From Buxus sempervirens (taxonomy: Eukaryota; Streptophyta; Magnoliopsida; Buxales; Buxaceae), in NCBI GenBank assembly GCA_947561395.2, contig OX387191.1:35047439-35111438 (forward strand): 64,000 nucleotides of DNA. The letters are read 5' to 3'. A program made the position numbers and the translations under genes. How positions within the stretch are numbered: position 1 is the stretch's first letter; each line of letters begins with the position of its first letter. Below the pieces are notes generated by a model. The model made no database searches. It worked only from the letters and a program-made list of their open reading frames with translations, and was not told the DNA's origin. Below are positions 41,655 through 53,330 of the stretch, one piece after another.

Positions 41655-42199
41655 TGTGCGCACGTCGTGCCGGTGCGAGGGCACGCGCGAAAGTGAGGGG
41701 AGAATTGGGGGTTAGGAGTCGCCACTGCCTGACGGGGTGCAGGCAGACACCTGGGTGCCCTAAGGATGTCTGTTTTAGTCTGCGGCTTGAGATTCTGAGA
41801 AAGGGCTCGGTTACGGTCCGGGGAAGTCCGTAGACACCCCAGTCCGCCCCGTCGGTTTGACGGGTCCCTTGGGTTTCCTGGTTTGGAGTCAACTCATTTC
41901 TGAACACTCACATGATTCCTAATCCAGCATGCACTTTTATTTAAGTCTGGTGGGGACCGTTGAAGCAGTATGAGTCCCCTTTTTTTATTGATTTTATCTT
42001 TCAGCTGTAAGTGAGATGAGTCTGGTTGGGTGGGCCCCGTTGGAAGGCCCACGAATCCTTATTGGGCCCAGGTGGGCCCCAGTCTCAAAAAGTGGGCTTG
42101 GGTTAACCCAAAGACCCAACGGGTTTAGTTTGATTAAATTCGGATCAAGTCAGCTGGATCCGGATCAGAGAATTCGGGTTTTGAGGCTTTTCTGGGTTT

Positions 42200-42278
42200 A
42201 ACCGCACACTCTGTGCGATTTGGGCGTAACCGCACATACTATGCGGTTACAGCCGAACCGCTCTGCGTGTGCGGTTTC
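42200..42278 (-). repeat. TR-GAG LTR palindromes downstream of TATA
   Basis: Three dyads: ACCGCAC/GTGCGAT, ACCGCAT-type arms around 42229-42249 (ACCGCA/TGCGGT) and ACCGC/GCGGT around 42256-42275. The stem is nearly constant and the loop varies. An identical copy lies in the 5' LTR near 51079-51157. Confidence 0.7.
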
Positions 42279-42847
42279 GGCCCAGAAAGCCTGAAATGCC
42301 AAAAATACGAGGAGGGCTGTGTTCGTATACCTCTCAGGGGGTTTTTACGAACTTCTGTGGGTCTCTAAGCTGAGCCACAGTGGCTCAAATGCTCCATTTT
42401 CGGAGTTTAGGCTTTTCCCCTTACCATGGGAGATATCTCATATGAAGGAAATGAGGAAAAGACGCACTATTGTCATGTCGAAAAATAACTTTCAAACAAG
42501 AAGTACAAGAATCCTAAAACATGCTTGAAATCAACTCATCTTCATGTATGTGAAACAAACATTGATAGGAAACAATACCTTGGGGCTTAAACCCTTGTGT
42601 GGGGTGTGAGGACCCCCTTTCTGAGACGAAAACAGTGGCTGGAAGCACCTCTCCCAGAAGCCGCAGCAAGCTTATTCCTCCTTCTTCAAGTTGGGTAGTG
42701 ATGGAGAAGTAGGATGAGCTTTGATGGGGTTTGAATGGTTTGGAATGCAAAAGGGGCAAAGAGAGAGGGTTTCGTACCAGGGACGAAGGGGAGAAGCAGT
42801 GGGAAATGAGCAAAGAATCGCCAGCCCCTGTCCAGAGTTCGGGTTTG

Positions 42848-43120
42848 CTATTTATAGAAAACAGGGACAAAACCGCACATACAGTGCGGTTTATGTGCAA
42901 TTTGGTCAAAACCGCACAGTAGGTGCGGTTTGGTCTAAACCACAGGGTATGTGCGGTTTGACAACGTCTTTTCAGCAATCATTAGGGGACAAACTGCGCA
43001 GGCGCAGACTAACGCGCCATGCAACCGTACTGTATGTGCGGTTGACTTTTCGGCGCCGCTTGCTCTGATTGGCTCGCGAGGGCGGTGGCCGAAAAATTCA
43101 ACCGCACAGCATATGCGGTT
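42848..43120 (-). promoter_or_regulatory. TR-GAG LTR TATA box and upstream palindromes
   Basis: CTATTTATA (42848-42856) is a TATA box on the minus strand. Just upstream in sense are five dyads with arms ACCGCA/TGCGGT or close variants, at about 42871-42892, 42908-42931, 42937-42958, 43021-43043 and 43098-43120. Loops differ. The last has seven-base arms. Confidence 0.75.
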
Positions 43121-43262
43121 GCGTTTTTCTTTCCCCTTTTGGCTTGAGTTGACGGCTGAGGTGACTCAGCCGCTGACTCGGACGAATCATGTTCCTCCAA
43201 TTTTTTATTATTTCCCATTTAACTTAGCATATTTTTGTTTGATCAAAATTTGGGTGCTTACA

Positions 43263-43305
43263 ACTGCCCCCCTTTGTCGAAGTCACCTGTTGACGAACGA
43301 CAAAG
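43263..43305 (-). other. TR-GAG polypurine tract within a stem
   Basis: On the minus strand AAAGGGGGGCAGT abuts the 3' LTR. Its AAAG belongs to a perfect 8-bp stem, CTTTGTCG (43272-43279) with CGACAAAG (43298-43305). E1 has the related arms CTTTGCCG and CAGCAAAG at the same place. Confidence 0.78.
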
Positions 43306-45414
43306 GTTGAAAGAAAACCCAAATTTTGCATTTTTCACATCTTTCTGAGGTAGCCTTGGATTTGATTTTTTTGGTTTTGTGGGATAAAGCACATTAACGC
43401 CAGCTTGTTACGCGTGTGGTACTTTTCCCATTTCTGGTTCTTAGAAATAGGTGGTGATTAGCACCTTTTTCTAGATTCTGGTTCTTGGGAATAGGTGGTG
43501 ATTAGCACCTTTCCGGTTTTTGGTTCTTGGAATAGGTAGTGATTAGCACCTTTCCGGTTTTGGTTCTTGGAATAGGTGGTGATTAGCACCTTTCCGGTTT
43601 TTGGGAAAGAAGTGACGCTTTGCACATCTTTCAGGTTTTGGGAGGTTTTAGGTTTTCTGGATGATTCAACTTCTCAGATTTCAGTGAGGATGCAATTTTT
43701 AGGGTGTAAGCATTTTTCTTTTTTTTTTTATATATATTTTTATTTTTTCTTTAGGAATGGCGGCTGGAGGTGGGCCAAGGAAGGGAAGGAGAGAGGAAGG
43801 AGGAGGTGCTCTTGGTGAGGGGGTACTCCTGGTGCTGTCCGGTGCCTCAAGGAAACTTGCACACCTGTCATACTCTACTTACAAAAGTGGGAAATAAAAA
43901 ATTACATGGGGGGCCAACTTGCCCTTCTTTCTTCAAAACACGCATTCTTTTCTTGTTCTATAGCTTGTTTAAGCTTTGTTCTGGATGGTTCTCCGCCGGG
44001 GCTATGGGGATTCTTTATTTGTTAAAGAACCCGTAAGGGACAGGTGAGCTTTTTGCAAATTCCCTCTTGGTGTGCTATGGCTTTCCTCCACTTTGCCTTT
44101 CTTTTCTTCTCTTTTATTTTTTTCTTTCTTCTTCTTTTTTTGGCTTGAGGATGCTCCTTGATATCCTCTGACTTTTTCTGCCTCGCATGGGCCTGCAAAA
44201 ATTCTCACAGAGTAGTGAGGTATCTGAAATTCACATTGTAAGCACTTGTGGCTTACTTGGTTTTATTGTGTGTGCGAGTGCACATGACTGAAATGAAATA
44301 TTTTTTTCCAAAAGATTTTTCAGAAATTTGGTTCAAGCGCTTCAAAAGAAATGGCAGGACCAGTGACCATGGTGATTTGCCTTGTTAGCTTGAAGTGTTC
44401 TGGGACGGTGTGTTCGACACGTATTCCCATGAAATTCTTGACTTGTGCCAGCATTGGCTCTTAGAGGTTCTGCAAAGGTTTAGAAGATGAGGGGTGTCTC
44501 AAGGAGTGTTCTCCCTTCCCCAGTTTTGGTTTCTCTCACCTTGACCCAACCATTTAGGGTGGCTTCAGGATTTTGCAATTGATGGTTTTTTCCCTTTGTC
44601 TTTTTCCCCTTGGGGTTAGTGCTTGCCCCAGTTTGAGGGTCTTTGGCCGACTTTTGTGCAACATGTCCTATAGATCAGAGAGGTCTTGAAATTAGGACGA
44701 AAAATTGGCTTCGTTTCTAGTCTGAGAAATGATGGGATTTAAGGCTCAAGTTCTTATATTTTTATTTCCAGGTTTTACTTTGTGTCTTGCCGAAGCTCAT
44801 TCTTCTTTCTAGATTCCTTCATCATAGATCCGCATGAACCCGATTGTCACATTTTCTGCAATCAAAAAGGACTTTTTGATGGGACGAAACATAGGCTGAG
44901 GTCTTTGGTTTATGAAAGAAAGGTAATATGGCTCAAAGTCTTTTGTAAATGGGTCGAGTCATGTTCTACCCCTTTTTTGATTGCTTGGGCTTTGCCAATA
45001 CCTTTACTTTCCTTTTCTTTTTGAGGTCTTTTGTGACCTTCGCTTTTTCTCCTCTAACATATTTGATTTCCTTTCCTTTGGTCTGGGGTCATCTTAGCTT
45101 TTTGCTTTGATTAGCATGCCCAAGTTTATTTTCTGCTTTCTTTTCTTTTTCTTTGCTCTTTGCTCATCCATGTCTTTTCTTCTTACTAGGCACCATATTT
45201 AGCACTCATGACTCAATGGGTTAGAAAGAAGTAAGTTATGCCCAAATGGTTTGACTAGAGATATGACTTTAAAAACTGGGAAAATAAAGCAAGGATGGCC
45301 TTTCATCCTTTTGCAGAAGTTGTGACAACTCGGTTGAAATGTTCATGCAAATTTATTCAGGAATCTATTCATCCTTTTTATTTTCTTTTTCAGCTTTGCC
45401 CCAGTGTGGGGTAG
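43306..45414 (-). other. TR-GAG 3' untranslated region
   Basis: About 2.1 kb without recognisable protein on either strand. A repeat of roughly 45 bases (ggtggtgattagcaccttt) occurs four times at about 43430-43602; it contains the dyad GGTG/CACC. The rest is T-rich. This is where pol would lie in an autonomous element, and I see no trace of it. Confidence 0.65.
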
Positions 45415-47040
45415 CTAGACACAACACGGGTATTTGAATAATACGATCAAGCCCAAAGTGTTTTGGCCCGGTGTGTTGGCTATAGTGGTAGGGGTAGGAG
45501 GATCCACAGTAAGTCTTTTGGAGTCAATTAAGTCCTGGATCGCATGCCGAAGGGCCCAACACTGATTGGTGGCGTGCCCCGGTGACCCCATGTGATATTC
45601 ACAGATTGCTTTGGGGTCGTAGCTCCTACCCAATGCCGCGTTTGGGTTAGGGGAAATCATCCTCAAGTAGCCTCCCTTTAGCAGCGTTGGGAGGAGTTCG
45701 GCAGGCGTGTATGGAAGTGGTGTGAATACCCTGCTTCTTCTATCTTCCCTTTGCACACCCTGCAGTGGTGCCGACCCCGTAGGCCTTGCGCCATGTGGAT
45801 GAGACCCTCCTTGCAGGTGGAGTGGTCGTGGCCCCTGTGCAGAGTCAATGCTTGCCACATCTTTCTGGCCTTCAGGCCTCCTGCCTCCATTCATTGGCCT
45901 TCTTGCCGTCGCCCCAGGTGAGCTTGCCTCTATCAATCCTGACTTAATGCCACCTTCAACCCTGTCGGCTATCTGGACCAGGGCGCTGAAGCTTGTTGCT
46001 TGCTGGCCAATCATGTGGGAGTAGTAGGGTTGTCCCAAGGTTGAGATGAATAGGCTGGCCATCTCTTCCTCCGTCAATGGTGGGTGCACCATCATCGCGT
46101 GTTCACGCCACCTCCGGGCGTAGTCTCTGACTGTCTCTCCAGCCTTCTTGCTCATCCTCATCAATTCCATCCTTGTAGGTACCACCTCAGTGTTAAACCT
46201 AAACTGTTCGGTGAAGAGGTGCGCCAAGTCAGGCCAAGTGCGGATTTGTACGGGGTTCAGGGTGGAAAACCATCGGTGTGCTTGCCCTGTCAGAGACCTT
46301 TGGAACAATTGTATCATTAACTGCTCATCCCTGTTGTATCCCACCATGGCTCCGCAGTATGACCGGAGATGTGCAGTTGGGCAGCCGGTCCCGTCAAATT
46401 TCTCAAAGTCAGGACACCTGAACTTTGCTGGGAGTTGTATGTCGGGGAAGAAACAGAAATTGTCAACTGTCATCCTTCCTGGCACTGCCCCCTCTCCTCA
46501 GTTCTTGCCATTCTGCTCTGAGGTCATTGATCATGGCACTGACTTTGGGCGAGATGCCCCTCGCTTCATTTCTCTGTCTGTACCACTCCTCTTCTTCTTC
46601 ATGGTTTATCTCTGGAATATGTGGGAGATGTAGTGCGTCATCAAGAGGTATCTGCTACGGTTGCTGGGCTTGTGGAACGACAGGAGGCGGTACTTGAGGA
46701 GGGAGGACTGGTGGAGGCATTACATGAGCCGGTGGCGGAGCTTGTGGCGGCCCTTGCAATCCCTGCGGCAATGCTTGCGGTTCTCCTCGTGGCTGCGGGA
46801 TCACTGGCTGTGGCATTTGTCTGATGAGATTTTGGAGCAGCTCAGTGATCTGCCCCACTTGCTGGTTTAAGTGCACGATTGCCGGCTCGTCCTCAATTCT
46901 GCGAGGTGGCGGAGGTTGCTGTGGTGCGGGAGGCTGTGGTGCCAGTGGCTGAGGCACAGGTGGCTCTTCCGGATTCATCTTCGTGCGGGATCTTAACAGA
47001 TATGGACTTCGGGGAGCTATGGCCGCAACACTTTCAACCT
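45415..47040 (-). mobile_element. gag: TR-GAG gag region
   Basis: On the minus strand the frame starts with SPYLLRSRTKMNPEEPP (near 47015), as in E1 gag, then a long Pro/Gln linker, the capsid phrase FDGTGCPTAHLRSYCGAM, YARRWREHAMM and PYYSHMIGQQ. A zinc-knuckle-like CEYHMGSPGHATNQC follows (C-x2-H-x5-H-x4-C), then the HAIQDLIDSKRLTVDPP stretch. This is the only protein region of the element. It has a couple of interruptions. It may pack its own RNA or co-assemble with relatives; that is inference. Confidence 0.85.
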
Positions 47041-47199
47041 TGGTAAAATAAAAATAAAATAAAGAGGAAAAACAAAACAAAAGACATGTTAGTTTCTTCC
47101 AAAAATGGTTTGCTCCTGTGCGAGCGCAGCCGTGTGTGGCAAAATTGGAATGAGTGCCATGGCTGGCGTGAGTGATGTTTATAGCAAAAAGTGAATTTC

Positions 47200-48812
47200 G
47201 CGCTGTGTATAGCGCTAGTGCAGTGAATGGCAAAAAGAATCTTCGCACTGTGGATAGTGCTGCAGCCGTGGAAGGCAACCGCCGTGAATGGCTATGCATG
47301 AAAAGAGAAACATCTTGAAAGCTATGCTATGCCGAGGATTGGCAAGGGTAGCCCAAGGGTGGATGCCGTGTTTGGCCTTCTTGAAAGCTGTGCTATGCCA
47401 GGGATTGGCAAGGGTAGCCCAAGGGTGGTCGTCTTGAAAGCTGTGCTATGCCAGGGATTGGCAAGGGTAGCCCAAGGGTGGATGCCGTGATTAGGGCCTT
47501 CTTGAAAGCTGTGCTATCCCGTGTAGGGGAAGGGTAGCCGAAGCTGTGCTGTCCCAGACACAAGAAGGGTAGCCCAAGGGTGGTCGTCTTGAAAGCTGTG
47601 CTATCCCGGACGAGAAGGGTAGCCGAAGCTGTGCTATCTCGAACACGAGAAGGGTAGCCCAAGGGTGGATGCCGTGATTAGGGCCTTCTTGAAAGCTGTG
47701 CTATCCCGTGTATGAGAAGGGTAGCCGAAGCTGTTCTATCTCAAACACGAGAAGGGTAGCCCAAGGGTGGTCGTCTTGAAAGCTGTGCTATCCCGGACGA
47801 GAAGGGTAGCCGAAGCTGTGCTATCTCGAACACGAGAAGGGTAGCCCAAGGGTGGTCATCTTGAAAGCTGTGCTATCCCGTGCATGAGAAGGGTAGCCGA
47901 AGCTGTGCTATCTCGAACACGAGAAGGGTAGCCCAAGGGTGGTTTGTGAGCTGTGCTATCCTGTGTATAGGAAGGGTAGCTCAAGGGTAAGCTGTGCTAT
48001 CCCGTGAATGGGAAGGGTAGCTCGAAAAGGGAATGCTGTGTATAGCTTATTTGTGAGCTGTGCTATCCCGTGTATGGGAAGGGTAGCTCGGAGGGTGAGC
48101 TGTGCTATCCCGTGAATGGGAAGGGTAGCTCAAGGGTGAATGCTGTGTATAGCTTATTGTGAGCTGTGCTATCTCGAACACGAGAAGGGTAGCTCGGAGG
48201 GTGGTTTGTGAGCTGTGCTATCCTGTGTATAGGAAGGGTAGCTCAAGGGTGATGCCATGAATGGCAAAGAGTGTTTCGCACTATGGATAGTGCTGTAGCC
48301 GTGAATGGCCTTCTTGCAAGACTGTGATATCCTGTGTGTAGGATGCCGTGGTTGGCTAGTCCCAAGGGTAAGCACTGTGGATAGTGCAACAAATGTGTAT
48401 AGCAGATCCTTAGGCTTATGTAATAGATGACATGTGGACACTGTGCATGGCGAGCCCTTGGGAAAGGGCACCGTGAATGGTGCGAATGCTGTGAATAGCA
48501 AAGGAGGTTGCACCGTGTATGGTGCACGTGCCATGGATGGCAAAATGCATTTTGAGGCTTTTGATGGTGTCGTGAATGACACGATGACTTTTGAAATCTT
48601 GGTTTTGGTGCCGTGGATGGCACAGTGAATTTTGGAAATCTTGGTTTTGGTGCCCTGGATGGCACAGTGGTTTTTGGAAGACAAAAAATTGTGCCGTGGA
48701 TGGCACAAGGATCTTGACAAATCAGTTTAAAACATTTTTTTTTATTTTTTGGAAATCTTTTCTAAGGTTTTGCCATTTGATGGCGAAATCTGAAATCATG
48801 CCGTGACTGGCA
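47200..48812 (-). repeat. TR-GAG leader: hairpin series with constant GTGNAT loop
   Basis: At least 17 short hairpins share the loop GTG(A/G/T)AT (plus strand; ATNCAC in element sense) or a one-base variant, while the stem arms differ and remain complementary. Examples: GCGCT/AGCGC 47200-47215, GCACT/AGTGC 47245-47260, GCC/GGC 47281-47292, TCCT/AGGA 47959-47972, TCCC/GGGA 48000-48013, GCT/AGC 48035-48046, GCACC/GGTGC 48468-48483, TGCT/AGCA 48487-48500, TGCACC/GGTGCA 48509-48526, GTGTC/GACAC 48567-48582, GTGCC/GGCAC 48608-48623, TTGTGCC/GGCACAA 48689-48708, TGCC/GGCA 48799-48812. The series lies between primer site and gag. Confidence 0.88.
47330..48260 (-). repeat. TR-GAG leader tandem cassette array
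   Basis: About 20 diverged units with a fixed frame, gctgtgctat on the left and agggtagc on the right, around an exchangeable hairpin. Inserts include TGCCA/TGGCA around gggat (from 47396), TCCC/GGGA and TCCT/AGGA around a GTGNAT loop, and TCTCG/CGAGA around aaca (for example near 47637). Linkers such as ccaagggtggtcgtcttgaa recur. Open frames across it are repeat products. Confidence 0.88.
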
Positions 48813-49484
48813 AGTTTTGAAATTCATGCTACAAAGTAGCAAAATTGGGGGACCATTGGAATTGGCTCCACATGTTATACCGTGGATGGCATTGCTTCAA
48901 TTGAAAAGAATATACCCATGGAAGGGCAATTTGATGTTTCTCAAGGATGACAGCTCGATATAACCATGGGAAGTGGTTTATCGTGAGTCATGGGAGATTT
49001 TTGTGAGTGTACGTCTTGAAAGACAATTTTGATGTAGGCCCAAAGGCCACTTAAAAAAGCCATTTGGATGTGTGCCTCGGGAGGCGGCTTGATGTACGCC
49101 TGAGGCGATTGGATTTTGAAAATTCTTTATGGTGCATTTTTCAAAGCAATTTTGACCAAAAGTGTTGGTGTGGCTTTTGATTTTGAAATGGTTGCACTTT
49201 GATGTGCAAATGGTTTATGCATGTGTAGGATGGTAAGGGCACGTGTAGCGGGGCTTACCATCCTTGACATTGCGTCAAGCAAAAAACACACAAATGAAAT
49301 TGCAGTGTGTGTGCAGTCCTATGAGGGTTGGTGCCAGTGAAGGCACAACTCCTAGACGTACTTGTGTGAGGAAGCACATCTAAGTCCTGATCAGTCTTTG
49401 TCTTTCATCTGTTCTGGAGATTCTCTGTTGCTTGATTGAGGGAATGCTTACAACTTGCCAGCAAGGGCGAAATCACTTAAAGCT
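48813..49484 (-). other. TR-GAG leader, remaining part
   Basis: No protein recognised. A few more inverted pairs occur (AACC/GGTT near 48963-48977, GCCTC/GAGGC near 49074-49085, GGCCC-type near 49037). The sequence then becomes unstructured to the eye up to the conserved leader block. Confidence 0.45.
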
Positions 49485-50175
49485 TAAAAAGCTGGAAAAG
49501 TGTTCGATCCCAGGGTTGTTGGGAACCCAAAGAAAGGATACATTTGATTTCAAGAGGGTAGGCTGAAAAGTCCTAGATCTAGGGTTTCATTATCCCTGTT
49601 CTGATCTGATCTGCTTTCATCTGCTTTTCTGATCTGGCCGGCTTTCGTCTGCTTGAAGACTGATTCGGACTTAGTGTGCTTCCTGCGGACTCAAATGGGT
49701 CAAGGCCCACGGCTCACAGGACTCAATGAATGGATCTGGGGTGGTTCCCCTGATCAAAAGTAGGTAGGCTTCCTAATTTAGGGCCGAGATAGCCCAGAGT
49801 CTAGGGTCCACTCAATTTGATGCAAAAAGGGTAGGGGGTTGCTGCCCCTGATGGACTCTTGGATTTTAGATTGATTTTACTCCTCTTGTATCATCATTCA
49901 CAATCACATTCATCACAAAGGTGTATCAGAACGCTGGGTGGGAAAATGGTACACAGCCCGAGACAAACGCCTACAAGGGTCTGTGCCAAGTCCAAGATCC
50001 CTCGCGTACCACGGCAAGAAACCAGCGGTGCTATAAGGATCCAGAAACCTGGGGAGATGTTTTACCTTCACTTTTCCCCGGCAAGCCAGAGGCGTGTGAG
50101 GCTAATATCATCCCAAAAGTAGTTTATACGGTTAAGAAGGGTGGCTGCTAGAGAGGTCTAGGGTTTGGTTGAGAA
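49485..50175 (-). other. TR-GAG leader block shared with E1
   Basis: On the minus strand this aligns with E1 4480-5040, with shared phrases around 49996-50020 (ccctcgcgtaccacggcaag) and 49634-49650 (tctggccggctttcg). It lies at the same place in both elements, downstream of the primer site. No frame is conserved, so the constraint is probably at RNA level. Confidence 0.6.
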
Positions 50176-50296
50176 GATGCTTCACATGTGCCATTTAATC
50201 GGATCACCCACGTGGGCTCCCTCGCGCGTGTCACCCCACGCATATATAATGAAGGCAAATAGAATAAGCAGATAGATAATTGAAGAACAAGACATG

Positions 50297-50465
50297 CTAC
50301 ATGTGTATATACAAGTGCATGTGTACATGGAAGTTTATGTGCGTGTGTGCACGTGCAACAGTGTGTGTGTGTGCACATGTGTAAGTGCATGTGCGTGTGT
50401 GCACATGTGTACAAGTATGTGCGTGTGTGCACATGTATGAGTGCATGTGCGTGTGTGCACATGTA
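50297..50465 (-). repeat. Alternating purine-pyrimidine tandem repeat
   Basis: Units of the type gtgcatgtgcgtgtgtgcac, about 45 bases apart, over about 170 bases. The alternating GT/AC/GC pattern could adopt Z-DNA. Histidine-rich frames across it are artefacts. Confidence 0.85.
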
Positions 50466-50512
50466 TCCTAATGAGTCAACTCAGTCTAAACTCCAATTGG
50501 GTTGAACCGGAT

Positions 50513-50530
50513 TCCCCAGCAGAGTCGCCA
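50513..50530 (-). other. TR-GAG primer-binding site (tRNA-Arg)
   Basis: Plus-strand TCCCCAGCAGAGTCGCCA is the complement of TGGCGACTCTGCTGGGGA, identical over 18 bases to the E1 site and likewise three bases from the LTR. This fixes the element orientation as minus. Confidence 0.9.
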
Positions 50531-50533
50531 AGC

Positions 50534-52139
50534 TGTGCGCACGTCGTGCCGGTGCGAGGGCACGCGCGAAAGTGAGGAGAGAATTGGGGGTTAGGAGTCG
50601 CCACTGCCTGACGGGGTGCAGGCAGACACCTGGGTGCCCTAAGGATGTCTGTTTTAGTCTGCGGCTTGAGATTCTGAGAAAGGGCTCGGTTACGGTCCGG
50701 GGAAGTCCGTAGACACCCCAGTCCGCCCCGTCGGTTTGACGGGTCCCTTGGGTTTCCTGGTTTGGAGTCAACTCATTTCTGAACACTCACATGATTCCTA
50801 ATCCAGCATGCACTTTTATTTAAGTCTGGTGAGGACCGTTGAAGCAGTATGAGTCCCCTTTTTTATTGATTTTATCTTTCAGCTGTAAGTGAGATGAGTC
50901 TGGTTGGGTGGGCCCCGTTGGAAGGCCCACGAATCCTTATTGGGCCCAGGTGGGCCCCAGTCTCAAAAAGTGGGCTTGGGTTAACCCAAAGACCCAACGG
51001 GTTTAGTTTGATTAAATTCGGATCAAGTCAGCTGGATCCGGATCAGAGAATTCGGGTTTTGAGGCTTTTCTGGGTTTAACCGCACACTCTGTGCGATTTG
51101 GGCGTAACCGCACATACTATGCGGTTACAGCCGAACCGCTCTGCGTGTGCGGTTTCGGCCCAGAAAGCCTGAAATGCCAAAAATACGAGGAGGGCTGTGT
51201 TCGTATACCTCTCAGGGGGTTTTTACGAACTTCTGTGGGTCTCTAAGCTGAGCCACAGTGGCTCAAATGCTCCATTTTCGGAGTTTAGGCTTTTCCCCTT
51301 ACCATGGGAGATATCTCATATGAAGGAAATGAGGAAAAGACGCACTATTGTCATGTCGAAAAATAACTTTCAAACAAGAAGTACAAGAATCCTAAAACAT
51401 GCTTGAAATCAACTCATCTTCATGTATGTGAAACAAACATTGATAGGAAACAATACCTTGGGGCTTAAACCCTTGTGTGGGGTGTGAGGACCCCCTTTCT
51501 GAGACGAAAACAGTGGCTGGAAGCACCTCTCCCAGAAGCCGCAGCAAGCTTATTCCTCCTTCTTCAAGTTGGGTAGTGATGGAGAAGTAGGATGAGCTTT
51601 GATGGGGTTTGAATGGTTTGGAATGCAAAAGGGGCAAAGAGAGAGGGTTTCGTACCAGGGACGAAGGGGAGAAGCAGTGGGAAATGAGCAAAGAATCGCC
51701 AGCCCCTGTCCAGAGTTCGGGTTTGCTATTTATAGAAAACAGGGACAAAACCGCACATACAGTGCGGTTTATGTGCAATTTGGTCAAAACCGCACAGTAG
51801 GTGCGGTTTGGTCTAAACCACAGGGTATGTGCGGTTTGGCAACGTCTTTTCAGCAATCATTAGGGGACAAACTGCGCAGGCGCAGACTAACGCGCCATGC
51901 AACCGTACTGTATGTGCGGTTGACTTTTCGGCGCCGCTTGCTCTGATTGGCTCGCGAGGGCGGTGGCCGAAAAAGTCAACCGCACAGCATATGCGGTTGC
52001 GTTTTTCTTTCCCCTTTTGGCTTGAGTTGACGGCTGAGGTGACTCAGCCGCTGACTCGGACGAATCATGTTCCTCCAATTTTTTATTATTCCCATTTAAC
52101 TTAGCATATTTTTGTTTGATCAAAATTTGGGTGCTTACA
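50534..52139 (-). mobile_element. TR-GAG 5' LTR (right on the plus strand)
   Basis: 1,606 bases, nearly identical to 41655-43262. It ends GGTGCTTACA followed by the target duplication cggtt. All regulatory palindromes and the U5 tRNA complement (50594-50603) are kept. Confidence 0.93.
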
Positions 52140-52144
52140 CGGTT

Positions 52145-53330
52145 CATAGCATAGCTCACTGCCATATGTGAACCAATTTTTAAGCTGCTAAGAAAGAACA
52201 ACCCAATGGTCTAGAATGATGATTGCCAATTGGCCTTTGATAAGATAAAGGAATATTTGCTAAACCCACCTGTGCTAGTGCCACCAACTCCGGGAAGACC
52301 ACTGATTCTGTACTTGTCAGTTTTGGAGACATCAATGGGGTGTGTCTTGGGATAGCATGATTAAATGGGCAGAAAGGAAAGGGCGATTTACTATCTGAGT
52401 AAGAAGTTCACAAAATATGAAGCTAAGTATTCTCCTTTAGAAAAGGCTTGAGCTTTAGTGTGGGCAACTCAAAGACTGAGACATTACTTCCTCAGTCATT
52501 CCACATCATTGATATCCAGAGTGGACCCACTGAAGTACTTATTTGAGAAACCGGCACTAACTGGCAGAACGGCGAAGTGGCAGCTTTTGCTTTCTGAAGT
52601 TGATCTCAAATATGTCATTCAAAAGGCAATTAAAGGTCAAGCAATCGTTGATCACCTAGCTGAGTATCCCTTGCCAGACTATCAGCCATTAAAGACTAAT
52701 TTTCCAGATGAGGCAGTTTTGTTTATTGAGGAAGAGGAAAGTGAAAGTTCTTGGCAGATGTTTTTCGATGGGGCTGCAAACATGAATGGAAATGGGATCG
52801 GGGCAGTTTTGGTCAAGCCGGATAGTTTACATATCCCAATCGCAGTGAAGTTGAGGTTCCAATGCATAAACAACATTACAGAATATGAAGCATGTATAAT
52901 TGGGTTGCGAGCTGCTCTAGACCATGAAGTGGAGGAACTTGATGTATACGGGGATTCGAGTCTTATCATCTTCCAGACAACTGGTGAATGGAAAACCAAA
53001 GATCACAAATTGATCCCATATCACCAATATTTGGAAGAAATAAGCACCAAATTTACTCGAATTTCCTTCGGCTATATGCCAAGGGCCAAGAATCGGTTTG
53101 CAGATGCTTTGGAAACATTGGCTTCAATGATCAGTATTCTAGAAGGAGTAGATATCAAACCACTGGAAATTGAAGTCAGAGATGAACCGGCTTACTATTT
53201 TGTTCTAGAAGGAATACCAGAAGAAGAAGTACCATGGTTTCATAATATTAGGAATTTCTTGAATAATCAAAGCTTACCAGAAAGTGCTACTTCTACAGAA
53301 AAAGGGCAATACAGAGACTAGCAGGATAGT
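52145..53330 (+). mobile_element. E2 RNase H and archaeal-type RNase H region
   Basis: Pol resumes after TR-GAG with the phrase around the connection domain, then a gypsy RNase H (YYLSKKFTKYEAKYSPLEK-like, LRHYFLSHSTSLISRVDPL near 52480-52530). The second, archaeal-type RNase H follows (WQMFFDGAANMNGNGIG near 52755-52805, YGDSSLIIFQ). This double RNase H marks the Tat lineage. A few breaks. Confidence 0.85.

What the first reader, a model, noticed from the sequence alone, without database searches (positions are those of the whole stretch)
47200..48812. Series of hairpins with a constant GTGNAT loop and stems that change on both arms
Seventeen or more small hairpins share one 6-base loop (GTG followed by A/G/T then AT; ATNCAC in element sense) while their stems differ: GCGCT/AGCGC, GCACT/AGTGC, TCCT/AGGA, TCCC/GGGA, GTGTC/GACAC, TGCACC/GGTGCA, TTGTGCC/GGCACAA and others. 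Both arms changing together around a fixed loop is the mark of selection on structure, here visible within one molecule. The series lies between primer site and gag in a gag-only element, where a packaging signal would be. A family of hairpins with a common loop would suit multivalent Gag binding. A rival explanation is template switching, which can copy one arm onto the other without selection. I know of no described plant LTR element with this design.
Basis: partly seen in the sequence, partly recalled or inferred. Interest (0 to 1): 0.92.

Follow-up and report, generated by a model that had tools for sequence, protein, structure and literature searches.

The report
Hairpin array in plant retrotransposon leader
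A plant jumping gene carries, ahead of its only gene, a run of repeated small hairpins whose paired stems change more slowly than the sequence around them while the loops drift; what the hairpins do, if anything, is not known.

Summary
In 47200-48812, 14 of 28 GTGNAT sites have a perfect stem of 4 bp or more (18 of 28 at 3 bp), against 0.012 on average in 2000 shuffles, and arms fit their own partners far better than swapped ones. The host is a young minus-strand LTR element (41655-52139, LTRs 99.6% alike, gag but no pol frame); the array lies in its leader.

Between copies of the same hairpin, one-arm changes outnumber paired ones about 13 to 1 (212 to 16). Yet on internal tree branches, relative to terminal ones, stem positions change about 0.6 times as often as spacers (stratified odds ratio 0.61, p=0.0003; 4 of 1066 mask shifts as low). 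Loops show no such constraint, and 10 of 45 copies, one clade, have no GTGNAT hairpin.

Best reading, by a narrow margin: a tandemly grown, G-poor leader whose sense RNA displays local hairpins with weakly kept stems. Arm-to-arm template switching explains nearly as much. A fixed-loop Gag-binding series is not supported. New variant of a known kind.

The parts
41655..52139 (-). LTR retrotransposon that holds the array; read on the minus strand
   Evidence: Direct repeats; LTR comparison 99.63% identity, 4 mismatches and 2 gap openings in 1608; CGGTT on both flanks, a 5-bp target duplication
50534..52139 (-). 5' LTR
41655..43262 (-). 3' LTR
50512..50530 (-). Likely primer binding site, sense TGGCGACTCTGCTGGGGAA, 3 nt after the LTR
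   Evidence: sequence; likeness to the tRNA-Arg sites of Ogre elements is recalled, not tested
46979..50511 (-). Leader of about 3.5 kb between primer site and gag start
47200..48900 (-). Hairpin array, class 1: stems of 3-7 bp around GTGNAT or a near-variant (sense ATNCAC); loops start at 47205, 47250, 47284, 48038, 48145, 48301, 48377, 48473, 48491, 48515, 48533 (ATGGAT), 48572, 48613, 48655 (CTGGAT), 48696, 48803 (GTGACT), 48882 (one A.C in the window copy)
47321..48250 (-). Hairpin array, class 2: tandem units GCTAT-N3-loop-N3-AAGGGTAGC with inner arms TCCC/GGGA, TCCT/AGGA, TCTC/GAGA, TGCC/GGCA, TCCC/GAGA; includes the GTGNAT loops at 47963, 48004, 48070, 48112, 48225
48900..49380 (-). Further structured leader with other 6-nt loops (49198 TTTGAT, 49336 AGTGAA)
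46655..46978 (-). Start of gag (ATG at 46978), proline-rich; lies in an open frame that runs 46655-47326
45415..46497 (-). gag, Retrotrans_gag PF03732 (E 9.4e-12)

Best explanation
The array is a tandemly expanded part of the leader of a young gag-only Ty3/gypsy-type element (probably Tat/Ogre-related). Shown: units multiplied and differ in number between copies; arms match within units; stem positions change less than spacers on internal branches, loops do not. Predicted by folding only: because the sense RNA here is poor in G (0.18), the class-1 hairpins stand out one by one in the genomic RNA but not in its complement. Inferred: copying slips and strand transfers between units multiply the hairpins, and in this lineage weak selection at RNA level keeps the class-1 stems pairable, so that the leader stays locally folded; this may help packaging or dimerisation by contacts that do not read the loop, or keep the long leader from pairing with gag or the primer site. 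The loop is not the selected part, and a sister clade does without the series.
For: Hairpin excess and arm matching. Internal/terminal changes, 54 rows, 17 hairpins: stem 110/182, loop 100/112, nearby spacer 314/325; stem vs spacer OR 0.63, p=0.0011; stratified by methylation context OR 0.61, p=0.00026, loop vs spacer 0.90, p=0.52; 4 of 1066 circular shifts of the mask reach the observed 0.57, and 9 chance hairpins in 49430-50490 give 0.89. Folding of 1.7 kb: of 24 listed hairpins (GTGNAT or near-variant loops) 19 have P>0.5 in sense and 2 in antisense; with pairs limited to 100 nt, 18 and 3. In all 10 copies folded (of 54 rows) mean P 0.62-0.88 in sense, 0.14-0.46 in antisense.
Against: At columns flagged CpG stems do not differ from spacers (OR 0.97). 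Stem against loop is weaker: stratified OR 0.68, p=0.058, and p=0.18 without the variable loop base. Internal breaks are not enriched in sense G.U (21 sense G.U, 26 antisense G.U, 22 other; terminal 39, 67, 37). At GTGYC/GRCAC the wobbles run the other way, 15 antisense-type to 3 sense-type, though a CCG context on one arm pushes that way. In class 2 the sense G.U type is far commoner (446 to 32 of 1293), but those TCCC/GAGA units are not predicted to fold (P 0.00 in sense, 26 units), so this is no support. Class-2 inner stems fold only partly (mean sense P 0.41-0.65 in 5 rows) and hardly at all in 3 rows of the sister clade (0.08-0.17). RNAalifold z-scores do not differ by strand. The sense/antisense difference survives spacer shuffling, so it is composition.
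Confidence: 0.38

Rival explanations
1. Neutral: hairpin-bearing tandem repeats whose arms are matched to each other by template switching (quasi-palindrome correction) during reverse transcription or DNA replication, with no selection on structure.
For: The process is documented (PMC8794818, abstract and passages). It explains matched arms, unconstrained loops, no preference for G.U over other mismatches, and slower apparent change of stems, since one-arm changes would be copied or undone; internal restorations split 9 compensations (one of them from a root pair that was itself mismatched) to 7 reversions. A clade spread without the series.
Against: Double changes on one branch are few: 4 Watson-Crick to Watson-Crick cases. 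Inverted loops, one possible trace, are 0 against 393 normal ones in 45 copies, but switching within one strand would not invert loops. TCCC/GAGA arms stand uncorrected in 446 of 1293 units, but these hardly fold, so they may not be open to correction.
Confidence: 0.36
2. A series of packaging hairpins with one loop (AUNCAC) bound by several Gag molecules, stems free to vary.
For: Position between primer site and gag; hairpins predicted to be displayed in sense RNA; one loop orientation only.
Against: Loops change like spacers; class-2 units have many other loops; 10 of 45 copies lack GTGNAT hairpins of 4 bp or more, and for 8 of these ten one search lists leader matches on both sides of the class-1 stretch.
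Confidence: 0.08
3. DNA-level palindromes: protein sites or cruciform-forming DNA, acting in the integrated copy.
For: The LTR of the same element has fixed palindromes, and palindromic repeat boxes are described in Sirevirus LTRs (PMC2829016, passages).
Against: Stem sequences differ from unit to unit, which a sequence-reading protein would hardly tolerate.
Confidence: 0.07
4. A repeat that codes for a peptide (AIHG-like repeats in the sense strand).
For: Open frames of 101-185 aa on the minus strand over the array.
Against: Successive units are 39-42 nt apart with several 41-nt steps, so the motif moves between frames, and three frames are open at once, as expected of a repeat without stops.
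Confidence: 0.01

Closest known systems
Tandem-repeat regions of Tat-lineage (Ogre, Retand) LTR retrotransposons (PMC7004042, PMC11963269; passages)
   Same: Variable tandem arrays in a non-coding part of a long plant Ty3/gypsy-type element; strand transfer is one proposed source
   Different: Those arrays lie downstream of pol, before the 3' LTR; this one lies between primer site and gag, and its units are hairpins. The passages read mention no hairpins, and 'hairpin' has 0 hits in PMC11963269
TR-GAG non-autonomous elements (definition recalled; mentions seen in a search listing)
   Same: LTRs and a gag, no pol open frame
   Different: 10.5 kb long with a 3.5-kb leader; no hairpin array was found described in the searches named in the report
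Dispersed packaging signals of small RNA viruses, e.g. satellite tobacco necrosis virus, enteroviruses, hepatitis B virus (PMC3593212, PMC7793301, PMC7612645; abstract starts in the listing)
   Same: Many small stem-loops with related loops and unlike stems (in part recalled)
   Different: There the loop motif is the part that is read; here the loop is the unconstrained part
Template-switch made RNA hairpins (PMC8794818; abstract and passages)
   Same: Perfect stems and paired changes without two separate selected mutations; fits most of the data here
   Different: Few double changes on one branch were found here; not excluded
Sirevirus repeated palindromic motif boxes (PMC2829016; passages)
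   Same: Serial palindromes in a non-coding part of a plant LTR element; resembles the LTR palindromes noticed here
   Different: CGG-CCG core shared by most boxes, mainly in the LTR upstream of the promoter; Sireviruses, not Ty3/gypsy

Membership tests
LTR retrotransposon, Ty3/gypsy Tat/Ogre-related | Two near-identical LTRs with TG..CA ends and a short target duplication | tested here: met
   99.63% identity; CGGTT on both sides
LTR retrotransposon, Ty3/gypsy Tat/Ogre-related | gag domain | tested here: met
   PF03732, E 9.4e-12
LTR retrotransposon, Ty3/gypsy Tat/Ogre-related | Placement by reverse transcriptase tree | not testable with these tools
   No pol frame in the element; the autonomous partner was not sought
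LTR retrotransposon, Ty3/gypsy Tat/Ogre-related | Primer site complementary to tRNA-Arg | not tested
   Sequence seen; tRNA identity recalled only
TR-GAG | gag present, no pol | tested here: met
   No minus-strand open frame of 90 aa or more between 43263 and gag; no domain search of that stretch was run
Dispersed packaging-signal series | Shared loop motif under constraint | tested here: not met
   Loop vs spacer OR 0.90, p=0.52; 10 of 45 copies without GTGNAT hairpins of 4 bp or more
Dispersed packaging-signal series | Hairpins form in the packaged RNA | tested here: inconclusive
   Predicted only: 19 of 24 in sense RNA; class-2 units partly or not
Dispersed packaging-signal series | Gag binds the hairpins | not testable with these tools
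   Needs a binding assay
RNA structure under selection | Stem positions change less than spacers in replicating lineages | tested here: met
   OR 0.61, p=0.00026; 4 of 1066 shifts; no difference at CpG-flagged columns
RNA structure under selection | Paired changes between copies exceed one-arm changes | tested here: not met
   16 paired against 212 one-arm breaks; decay after insertion inflates the latter
RNA structure under selection | G.U of one strand better tolerated than other mismatches | tested here: not met
   Internal breaks 21 sense G.U, 26 antisense G.U, 22 other; class 1 pair 3 sense-type to 15 antisense-type; class 2 446 to 32 the other way but in units not predicted to fold
Rfam RNA family | Match at gathering score | tested here: not met
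   46950-52200, E up to 0.5: 12 matches, none at its gathering score, 10 of them in 50294-50508, the TG-rich stretch

The most novel reading that the evidence does not exclude
In one lineage a plant retrotransposon leader has evolved a multivalent RNA scaffold: serial short hairpins with unlike stems in a G-poor sense RNA, stems selected for pairing rather than sequence, that nucleate assembly or compaction of its genomic RNA by structure and spacing rather than by a loop code, and that let a gag-only element compete for packaging.
Probability: 0.16. Interest if true: 0.75.

Novelty: new variant of a known kind. Interest (0 to 1): 0.45.

Why it matters
Packaging signals of plant LTR retrotransposons seem little known: a 2025 review of their life cycle has 0 hits for 'packaging signal' and 'hairpin' (PMC12786077). 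A within-element series of unlike hairpins, with over a thousand related units in one genome, is a natural test bed for telling selection on RNA structure from template-switch repair. The internal/terminal-branch contrast used here separates lineage constraint from decay after insertion and can be applied to other repeats.

Tried and rejected
Coding repeat: rejected, unit steps move the frame. Rfam: no family. Depletion of upstream ATG in the sense leader: 50 against 53.6 (sd 6.0) in shuffles, nothing. Strand difference by window z-score (small) and by RNAalifold z (none). Wobble direction in class 1: no support for sense (34 antisense-type, 22 sense-type among distinct single mismatches). One search counted class-2 units twice through a loose pattern and is replaced; one search held one loop start off by one (48534 for 48533), corrected from then on. 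The constraint question was looked at several times: 35-row alignment (two rows left out) without a tree, p=0.07 for stems at non-CpG columns; 54 rows, midpoint root, shared/single p=0.08, internal/terminal p=0.0006 at non-CpG columns; rooted at the window copy, because the stems were chosen there; stratified by context; mask shifts, which overlap and are not independent. The genome-wide count of the class-1 pair could not be had (server busy).

Not done: search for the autonomous partner; relatives in other species (none are held for this genome); naming of the species.

Full report
What is there. The window holds an LTR element on the minus strand, 41655-52139. Its LTRs (50534-52139 and 41655-43262) are 99.63% alike with 4 mismatches and 2 gap openings in 1608 columns, and CGGTT stands on both flanks, so it is a recent insertion. 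A likely primer site (sense TGGCGACTCTGCTGGGGAA, 50512-50530) is followed by a 3.5-kb leader, then gag (ATG at 46978; PF03732 at 45415-46497, E 9.4e-12). No minus-strand open frame of 90 aa or more lies between gag and the 3' LTR, which fits 'gag-only'. The N-terminal and the main gag parts lie in two open frames; I describe this only.

The observation. On the + strand of 47200-48812 there are 28 GTGNAT sites; 14 carry a perfect stem of at least 4 bp and 18 of at least 3 bp. Two thousand dinucleotide shuffles give 0.012 such 4-bp stems on average and never more than 1. When the 3' arms of all 31 sites in 47001-49400 are dealt out anew, 1.57 stems of 4 bp form on average (maximum 7 in 5000) against 14; with identical arm pairs counted once, 0.87 against 8 of 21. 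Elsewhere in the window 0 of 57 sites on the + strand and 1 of 64 on the - strand have such a stem. So a shared loop with matched but unlike arms is beyond chance.

What the array is made of. Two unit types are interleaved. Class 1 units, 39-42 nt apart in the right part, are stems around GTGNAT with A/T-rich spacers. Class 2 units in 47321-48250 read GCTAT-N3-loop-N3-AAGGGTAGC; 354 were counted in 35 rows, with inner arms TCCC/GGGA 85, TCCC/GAGA 70, TCTC/GAGA 56, TGCC/GGCA 46, TCCT/AGGA 19 and rarer ones, and with loops GTGAAT, GTGTAT, GTGCAT, AAACAC, GAACAC, GGAC, GGGGATT and others. Genome-wide, the class-2 pattern with the middle pair left open occurs 1293 times and its backward control never.

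Copies. The leader has many relatives in the same 676.5-Mb genome (115 matching pieces; 1656 first-look candidates; 40 candidates were scored in each). I used 54 rows: the window, 20 regions, 14 of the 30 loci (the others overlap these), and 19 shorter stretches. L035/L036 are near-identical neighbours, and L024/L077 may be two parts of one copy. In the 45 rows with at least 600 nt of the array (9 dropped: L034-L036, L066-L068, L074-L076), the number of GTGNAT hairpins of 4 bp or more runs from 0 to 19 (sum 393), with no inverted (ATNCAC) one. Ten have none: L057 (partial), L037, L038, L064, L065, L069-L073. They keep 12-18 class-2 units, and their hairpins of 5 bp or more with any loop are close to shuffled sequence (z from -0.5 to 1.9). 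The ten fall in one clade of 14 rows (support 1.0), whose other four rows (L068, L074, L075, L076) were among the dropped. A sister clade has thus spread without the series.

Do the arms change together between copies? Seventeen hairpins that align one to one were followed on a FastTree tree of non-hairpin columns rooted at the window copy. One-arm changes from a Watson-Crick to another state number 69 on internal and 143 on terminal branches (212). Paired outcomes number 16: 4 double changes on one branch and 12 stepwise compensations (a thirteenth started from a mismatched root pair and is left out); 20 more cases are reversions. But copies decay freely after insertion, so terminal one-arm changes say little; some paired cases (48533, 48572) look like swaps with another unit.

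Constraint on internal branches. Counts internal/terminal: stem 110/182, loop 100/112, nearby spacer 314/325; stem vs spacer OR 0.63, p=0.0011; stem vs loop 0.68, p=0.036, but 0.77, p=0.18 when the variable loop base is left out; at CpG-flagged columns no difference (0.97), at the others 0.49, p=0.00014. Stratified by CpG, CHG, CHH, decayed-CpG and A/T context, over a wider spacer set, stem vs spacer is 0.61 (p=0.00026), stem vs loop 0.68 (p=0.058), loop vs spacer 0.90 (p=0.52). Sliding the stem mask round the region gives a value as low as observed (0.57) in 4 of 1066 overlapping shifts; nine chance hairpins of 49430-50490 give 0.89. A bootstrap over hairpins gives stem minus spacer log odds -0.47 (-0.84 to -0.18). 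A first test on the 35-row alignment without a tree had p=0.07. Alignment error in spacers, recombination between copies, parsimony and several looks at one question limit this result. It says that stems, not loops, are kept; it does not say how.

Which strand, RNA or DNA? Partition-function folding of 1.7 kb forms 19 of 24 listed hairpins (GTGNAT or near-variant loops) with P>0.5 in sense RNA and 2 in antisense; 18 and 3 with pairs limited to 100 nt. In the 10 copies folded the mean is 0.62-0.88 against 0.14-0.46. Six spacer-shuffled versions keep the difference (0.71-0.91 against 0.31-0.41), so it comes from composition (sense G 0.18, C 0.33). Class-2 inner stems have mean sense P 0.41-0.65 in 5 rows and 0.08-0.17 in 3 rows of the sister clade. 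In class 2 the arm pair that is G.U in sense RNA (TCCC/GAGA) occurs 446 times and the one that is G.U only in antisense (TCTC/GGGA) 32 times, of 1293. I first took this as support for a sense fold, but the 26 TCCC/GAGA units folded have P 0.00 in sense, and one old event multiplied by duplication would give the same counts. Class 1 runs the other way, 15 antisense-type to 3 sense-type at GTGYC/GRCAC in 54 rows, and internal breaks are as often plain mismatches (22) as sense G.U (21) or antisense G.U (26). Alignment-based folding energies do not differ by strand. RNA-level selection is possible, not shown.

Explanations. Tandem growth by illegitimate recombination or strand transfer between co-packaged copies is the published idea for the arrays downstream of pol in these elements (PMC7004042, passages). 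Matched arms can come from selection for pairing or from template switching that copies one arm onto the other (PMC8794818, abstract and passages). Both fit most of the data. I put selection at 0.38, template switching at 0.36, loop-read packaging at 0.08, DNA palindromes at 0.07, coding at 0.01; the rest is for what I have not thought of.

Novelty. The listings shown by the searches (capped, open-licence papers only) named no paper on a hairpin array in the leader of a plant LTR element. Retand arrays lie between pol and the 3' LTR, with 0 hits for 'hairpin' (PMC11963269, passages). I file it as a new variant of a known kind: a tandem-repeat region of a plant LTR element, in another place and built in part of hairpins.

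Noticed in passing
50534-52139 and 41655-43262: The LTR has its own palindrome series with a fixed stem and variable loop (AACCGCA..TGCGGTT at 51104, 51748, 51787, 51977 and weaker ones), the reverse of the leader design; compare Sirevirus RM boxes.
   Followed up: partly
50290-50475: A TG-rich microsatellite in the leader close to the primer site, which attracts sub-threshold Rfam matches.
   Followed up: no
52452-53321: An open frame with RNase H and RVT_3 domains on the + strand just outside the LTR: the element sits inside or beside another retroelement.
   Followed up: no
45415-47326: The gag N-terminus and the main gag domain lie in two separate open frames in this young copy; described only.
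   Followed up: no
L037, L038, L057, L064, L065, L068-L076: A clade of 14 rows; the ten that could be counted have class-2 units and no GTGNAT hairpin of 4 bp or more, a natural comparison group.
   Followed up: partly
48850-48870: A 7-bp stem GGAACCA/TGGTTCC in a distant copy (L033) is broken at two pairs in the window copy.
   Followed up: no
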